42,409 bases of DNA from Heliophilum fasciatum (GTDB lineage: Bacteria; Bacillota; Desulfitobacteriia; Heliobacteriales; Heliobacteriaceae). The notes under the pieces are model-generated. The model had not been told where the DNA came from. It made no database searches and was given only the letters and a program-made list of their open reading frames with translations. The DNA lies in assembly GCF_004341395.1 (NCBI RefSeq), contig NZ_SLXT01000025.1, forward strand, positions 1 to 42,409, in the 5' to 3' direction. The position numbers were made by a program, and so were the translations under genes. Positions 41,398 through 41,496 of this stretch are shown here, piece after piece; within the stretch, counting starts at the first letter, position 1; each line of letters begins with the position of its first letter.

Positions 41398-41425
41398 AAA
41401 AAAAGGCCTGCATCACTGCAGACCT
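41398..41425 (-). terminator. Minus-strand terminator of the tRNA-Thr locus
   Basis: On the minus strand AGGTCTGCA (41425-41417) pairs with TGCAGGCCT (41412-41404, one G-U pair), loop GTGA, then TTTTTTT (41404-41398). It is placed 12 nt after the CCA end of the tRNA fragment. Confidence 0.8.
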
Positions 41426-41437
41426 ACGTTATCATCA

Positions 41438-41496
41438 TGGAGCCGACGATGGGACTCGAACCCGCAACCTACTGATTACAAGTCAGTTGCTCTACC
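41438..41496 (-). tRNA. Partial tRNA-Thr (TGT): 3' 59 nt only
   Basis: On the minus strand 41496 to 41438 reads as a tRNA from G18-G19 to the encoded CCA. The anticodon stem ACTGA/TCAGT encloses loop CTTGTAA, anticodon TGT (threonine). The TTCGAGT T-loop and the acceptor 3' strand GTCGGC-T-CCA are present. The T-stem has one C-A mismatch (GCGGG against CCCAT). The first 17 nt (5' acceptor strand and half the D-arm) are absent; CTGTTTTCA stands there instead. The fragment cannot make a tRNA. A 3' tRNA copy of this kind is the classical scar of tyrosine-recombinase integration, with the element on the right-hand side here. Confidence 0.8.

What the first reader, a model, noticed from the sequence alone, without database searches (positions are those of the whole stretch)
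41398..41496. Truncated tRNA-Thr(TGT) with intact 3' terminator: likely attachment-site scar
Minus-strand tRNA positions 18-76 and the downstream terminator are present, but the 5' end is replaced. In tRNA-targeted integration, the 3' fragment marks the distal end of the element and the intact tRNA lies at the other end. The orientation places the element to the right (41497 onward), beyond the window. The terminator directly to the left suggests native chromosome on that side.
Basis: partly seen in the sequence, partly recalled or inferred. Interest (0 to 1): 0.6.

Follow-up and report, generated by a model that had tools for sequence, protein, structure and literature searches.

The report
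Prophage attachment scar in threonine tRNA
A piece of a threonine tRNA gene with its terminator marks the exact edge where a phage of a family specialised on that tRNA once inserted into the chromosome; this is an ordinary kind of mobile-element scar, though the wider phage family has some odd features.

Summary
Window 41438-41496(-) is tRNA-Thr(TGT) positions 18-76, followed by an intrinsic terminator (41398-41425). It is 100% identical over 59 nt to the genome's only intact tRNA-Thr(TGT) found, on contig C31. The interpretation also holds: this is an attR-type scar of a tRNA-targeting prophage. Exactly at the break (41497 rightwards) the sequence becomes the end of a phage family: about 390 bp match the sequence between a tyrosine integrase gene and an equivalent tRNA-Thr fragment on contigs C35 and C43, which also carry phage genes. 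The intact tRNA on C31 has a third integrase of this family 224 bp downstream. Two genomes of another genus (g3) repeat the arrangement at several loci. The element therefore starts inside the window, not beyond it. A transposon end at 42315-42409 stops the contig, so linkage to C31 is not shown, and no relative gives an empty site for this flank. The scar is ordinary. Two features are less so: the phage end carries a conserved promoter-like pair (TGTTCA-17-TATAAT) facing the fragment, and in genus g3 the same core bounds arrays of ~190-bp cassettes ending in the tRNA 5' part.

The parts
41438..41496 (-). tRNA-Thr(TGT) 3' fragment, positions 18-76 including CCA; host-side half of an attR-type junction; the attachment core lies within positions 18-43 (GTAGAGCAACTGACTTGTAATCAGT)
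   Evidence: 100% identity over 59 nt to the intact gene C31:17361-17436; core defined by comparing junctions across genera
41398..41425 (-). Intrinsic terminator of the tRNA gene
   Evidence: 9-pair hairpin plus T-run; 93% identical to the sequence after the intact tRNA on C31
41497..41891 (-). Prophage end (P arm), directly 5' of the fragment
   Evidence: 67% identical (74% including the tRNA part) to the sequence between integrase and tRNA fragment on C35, 67-72% on C43; shared motifs with 12 junctions of genus g3
41521..41549 (-). Promoter-like pair TGTTCA (41549-41544), 17 bp, TATAAT (41526-41521), facing the tRNA fragment
   Evidence: At least 11 of 12 hexamer bases and the 17-bp spacing kept in 15 aligned junctions of two genera while the rest of the arm is 43-63% identical to the window. 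Function inferred; the standard consensus scan does not list it because the first hexamer is weak
41892..42314 (.). Further element sequence, no gene called; holds a second copy of a dispersed repeat at 41981-42147
   Evidence: Repeat also on C43:9800-9944 and C55:2240-2394
42315..42409 (.). Terminal 95 bp of a transposon copy inserted in the element; contig end
   Evidence: 100% identical to C3:187129-187223 near the end of C3; 73-85% identical relative at the start of C24
40580..41230 (+). TPR protein gene, nearest gene on the chromosomal side
   Evidence: Pfam TPR; only about 30% identical homologues in the family

Best explanation
The fragment is the attR-type junction of a prophage (or its remnant) integrated by a tyrosine integrase into the tRNA-Thr(TGT) gene. 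The phage attP carries a copy of the tRNA from position 18 through the 3' end and terminator. Crossing over in the shared core (positions 18-43, anticodon arm) leaves an intact tRNA at the left end, made of host 5' part plus phage 3' part, and pushes the host's original 3' part and terminator to the far right end. The window shows that far end: element from 41497 rightwards, host tRNA 3' part and terminator, then chromosome to the left. Shown: fragment, terminator, phage-type arm exactly at the break, matching integrases and intact gene elsewhere in the genome. Inferred: the recombination itself, the pairing with C31, and whether the element is still complete.
For: Exact 59-nt identity with the intact tRNA, and 104 nt at 97%. 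The arm at the break is shared with C35 and C43, where it lies 3' of a full-length integrase (Phage_integrase plus SAM-like domain, PHROG 1) in contigs with phage DNA polymerase, anaerobic ribonucleotide reductase and a terminase small subunit. C31 carries the intact tRNA and an integrase 80% identical to the C43 one, 224 bp downstream. The same arm-core-3' part arrangement occurs at five loci of two genus-g3 genomes, each with an integrase or remnant (39-67% identical) about 1.3-2 kb away. A 3.2-kb remnant in another genus (G007) has intact tRNA, integrase remnant and 3' fragment in the order expected for this mechanism. The literature describes a tDNA plus a displaced fragment as the end marks of such islands, mostly with 3' fragments (PMC4383910).
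Against: No integrase lies within the 818 bp of element visible in the window. The contig ends in a transposon copy, so the other end is not linked. The left flank of the scar is not the 3' flank of the tRNA-Thr locus seen in relatives: the FtsA-like neighbour expected there is on C11 in this genome. No empty site was found. On C35 and C43 the integrase lies on the opposite side of the core from C31 and genus g3, which a single simple attP does not explain.
Confidence: 0.9

Rival explanations
1. The junction is not chromosomal but a phage-phage (tandem prophage) or attP-type junction, so the left side is also mobile DNA.
For: C35 and C43 junctions share sequence beyond the terminator with each other and with C45, as expected for attP or tandem junctions. 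The last three genes left of the scar are not conserved in relatives.
Against: In the window the similarity to C35 and C43 stops about 20 bp past the terminator. The genes further left are hydrogenase/hyp and arginine biosynthesis genes, the former in an order shared with relatives.
Confidence: 0.07
2. The promoter-like pair, the tRNA 3' part and the terminator form a gene for a short RNA (about 110-120 nt) that is kept because the RNA does something, for instance mimicking uncharged tRNA-Thr. This could be true on top of the scar explanation.
For: Hexamers and spacing conserved across two genera while the arm diverges. Terminator directly after the tRNA 3' end. Predicted fold more stable than shuffles, z -3.2.
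Against: Terminator and tRNA sequence are inherited from the host gene in any case. C43 lost part of the core and C17 lost the promoter region. In genus g3 the promoter often faces cassettes instead. Much of the fold is the terminator and the anticodon arm.
Confidence: 0.1
3. Simple decay: an old duplicate of tRNA-Thr truncated by random deletion or by a transposon.
For: A transposon end lies 820 bp away. Relatives have several tRNA-Thr(TGT) copies.
Against: The break coincides with the start of a phage arm that recurs at about the same tRNA position at several other loci, and the fragment has no mutation in 59 nt.
Confidence: 0.02

Closest known systems
tRNA-gene-targeted integrative islands with displaced 3' tDNA fragment (Islander class, anticodon-centred site; Hudson et al. 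2014, PMC4383910)
   Same: Tyrosine integrase, attP with tRNA 3' part, intact tRNA at one end and 3' fragment at the other, core in the anticodon arm
   Different: Several elements appear to share the one tRNA gene; that paper's Table 1 lists only 4 tandems of three or more islands among 2168 genomes. Linkage of the two ends is not shown here
Phages with tRNA-dependent lysogeny (Guerrero-Bustamante and Hatfull 2024, PMC10865867)
   Same: Phage tyrosine integrase attacking a tRNA gene; some attP sites inverted relative to the rest of the genome (Omega, Gaia), as C35/C43 appear to be relative to C31
   Different: Here attP carries the tRNA 3' part and restores the gene at the attL-like site on C31; no complete phage-borne tRNA-Thr seen in this genome
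Integron cassette arrays
   Same: Only for the genus-g3 arrays: short units bounded by one recombination site, in shuffled order
   Different: The site is a tRNA core used by a phage integrase; units carry no gene I could recognise; not present in the window's genome; movement not shown

Membership tests
tRNA-targeted island/prophage attR scar | Fragment contains the tRNA 3' end, with an intact cognate tRNA in the genome | tested here: met
   Positions 18-76, 100% identical to the C31 intact gene
tRNA-targeted island/prophage attR scar | Sequence 5' of the fragment belongs to an integrase-bearing element | tested here: met
   Arm shared with C35 and C43 next to integrase and phage genes
tRNA-targeted island/prophage attR scar | Tyrosine integrase associated with the intact tRNA | tested here: met
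   C31:17705-18895(-), 224 bp downstream
tRNA-targeted island/prophage attR scar | Intact tRNA and fragment on the same replicon in the same orientation, flanking one element | tested here: inconclusive
   Different contigs; window contig ends in a repeated transposon end
tRNA-targeted island/prophage attR scar | Empty site in a relative joins the two outer flanks | tested here: inconclusive
   Relatives lack the genes next to the scar and the tRNA locus is rearranged
tRNA-dependent lysogeny | Integration does not rebuild the tRNA and the phage supplies a whole tRNA | tested here: not met
   The C31 tRNA next to the integrase is complete and the C35/C43 sites carry the tRNA 3' part

The most novel reading that the evidence does not exclude
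These phages end in a promoter placed just before the attachment core. After integration that promoter reads into whatever the crossover put there: a displaced tRNA fragment with terminator (a tRNA-derived short RNA, as in the window), or, in genus g3, arrays of ~190-bp core-bounded cassettes carrying the tRNA 5' part that rebuild a transcribed tRNA-Thr. That would be a cassette system running on a tRNA attachment site.
Probability: 0.12. Interest if true: 0.65.

Novelty: new member of a known kind. Interest (0 to 1): 0.33.

Why it matters
The scar gives a precise end point for an otherwise hidden prophage, and explains the odd tRNA fragment. More widely, it points to a phage family in heliobacteria-like bacteria that repeatedly uses one tRNA gene across at least three genera, with several apparent insertions per genome and a conserved outward promoter-like sequence. 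The core-bounded cassette arrays in genus g3 are the part most worth a separate look.

Tried and rejected
Synteny of the left flank with the intact tRNA locus of relatives: the 3' neighbour there (FtsA-like gene) is on C11 in this genome, not on the window contig, so no empty site could be reconstructed. A tRNA-Thr lies 4-8.5 kb downstream of hypE in three genomes of genus g5, in the same relative place and strand, but it is tRNA-Thr(CGT), while the fragment is TGT and this genome has its CGT gene intact on C22, so I treat it as coincidence. The weak Rfam hit to Esr41 (E 0.2) rests mainly on the terminator and was dismissed. The named genome collection and IMG/VR gave few integrase relatives, the closest in Heliobacterium chlorum at 65%; the best-ranked known phages gave only about 30% identity. 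Two literature calls failed on syntax; a search for heliobacterial prophage papers gave nothing on this family.

Full report
Observation. ARAGORN finds no tRNA in the window and Rfam none at its gathering score, but a permissive scan gives a truncated tRNA at 41449-41503(-). Compared with the genome, 41438-41496(-) is identical to positions 18-76 of the intact tRNA-Thr(TGT) on contig C31, and the match continues through the terminator (104 nt, 97%). The terminator hairpin is at 41425-41404(-).

What replaces the 5' end. Reading the minus strand, everything 5' of tRNA position 18 is foreign to the tRNA gene. About 390 bp of it (41497-41891) match C35 and C43 (67-74%). On both contigs this sequence sits between a tyrosine integrase and a tRNA-Thr 3' fragment with terminator. 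C35 also encodes a phage DNA polymerase, anaerobic ribonucleotide reductase and nucleotide kinase, and C43 a terminase small subunit. The integrases are full length, with Phage_integrase and SAM-like domains. So the foreign DNA is the end of a phage of this family.

The intact gene. The search for this tRNA in the genome shows only one intact tRNA-Thr(TGT), at C31:17361-17436. Its neighbour 224 bp downstream is a third integrase of the family, 80% identical to the C43 one. On its 5' side are chromosomal genes (L,D-transpeptidase, dUTPase and others) also found near the tRNA-Thr(TGT) of other genera. This is the expected attL.

Relatives. Eight other genomes of the family were searched. Two of genus g3 carry several 3' fragments (positions 20/21-76), each with the same kind of arm on its 5' side and an integrase or remnant (39-67% identical) about 1.3-2 kb beyond its 3' side. 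A genome of another genus (G007) has intact tRNA, integrase remnant and 3' fragment within 3.3 kb, a decayed element in the textbook order. The comparison defines a shared core within tRNA positions 18-43, in the anticodon arm. The organism is inferred to be a heliobacterium-like bacterium, because the closest named integrase is from Heliobacterium chlorum.

Limits. The window contig ends 913 bp after the fragment, in the end of a transposon also found near the ends of C3 and C24, so the other end of this element cannot be reached. The left flank is chromosomal by content (hydrogenase and hyp genes in conserved order to 38031), but the last three genes are private and no relative shows an empty site. 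Also, on C35 and C43 the integrase lies on the arm side of the core, on C31 and in genus g3 on the tRNA 3' side. Inverted copies of a repeat flank the site on C43 (9123-9188 and 9881-9945), so an inversion of the site is possible; inverted attP sites are reported for phages Omega and Gaia (PMC10865867). I did not test this further.

Promoter-like arm. In 15 arms from two genera the pair TGTTCA-17 bp-TATAAT (or one change) is kept just before the core, although the arms as a whole are only 43-63% identical to the window's. In one g3 subgroup the spacer sequence differs but the hexamers and the distance remain. This suggests a promoter facing out of the element; it could instead be a protein-binding arm site. 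In the window it would give a short RNA of the tRNA fragment and terminator.

Cassettes in genus g3. In six places the core after the arm is followed by one to three units of 186-198 bp, each ending in the tRNA 5' part and the next core; in four of them the last unit is followed by a complete tRNA-Thr. Two unit types, A and B, occur in mixed order. Family-wide searches found seven full-length copies of type A, and four full-length copies plus one contig-end copy of type B, all in these arrays; apart from one 31-bp partial hit to A there was nothing elsewhere, and nothing in the window's genome. They look like core-bounded cassettes; how they arise or move is unknown.

Known or new. Tyrosine integrases that rebuild a tRNA gene and leave a displaced 3' fragment are well described (PMC4383910). 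The window feature is a new member of that kind. The phage family's pile-up on one tRNA gene and the cassettes are less usual, but they are outside the window and unproven.

Noticed in passing
L130 9040-9500, L154 940-1520(-), L155 1-469(-), L156 3699-4060, L158 7557-7754(-), L131 3429-3615 (genus g3 genomes G002, G006): Arrays of one to three 186-198-bp units bounded by the tRNA-Thr core and ending in the tRNA 5' part; two unit types in mixed order, full-length copies found only there.
   Followed up: partly
L044 137-6753 (C17:50136-56752): A Wadjet type I-like set of genes (JetA, JetB, JetC, JetD) about 1.9 kb 5' of another degraded tRNA-Thr attachment scar at C17:58608; may be cargo of an older element.
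   Followed up: partly
L043 9123-9188 and 9881-9945: Inverted repeats flank the attachment site on C43, and the integrase orientation relative to the core differs between C35/C43 and C31/genus g3; a possible inversion of the site.
   Followed up: no
window 41737-41887 and 41981-42147; C43:9800-9944; C55:2240-2394: Degenerate dispersed repeat of about 150 bp in the non-coding ends of these elements.
   Followed up: no
L075 9464-10138 (end of C3): A gene that looks by eye like a spore-germination permease is cut by the same transposon whose end closes the window contig.
   Followed up: no
L043 10335-14260 (C43): Radical SAM/SPASM protein and SNF2 helicase just beyond the attachment fragment on C43; partial similarity to defence-associated families, below curated cut-offs.
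   Followed up: partly
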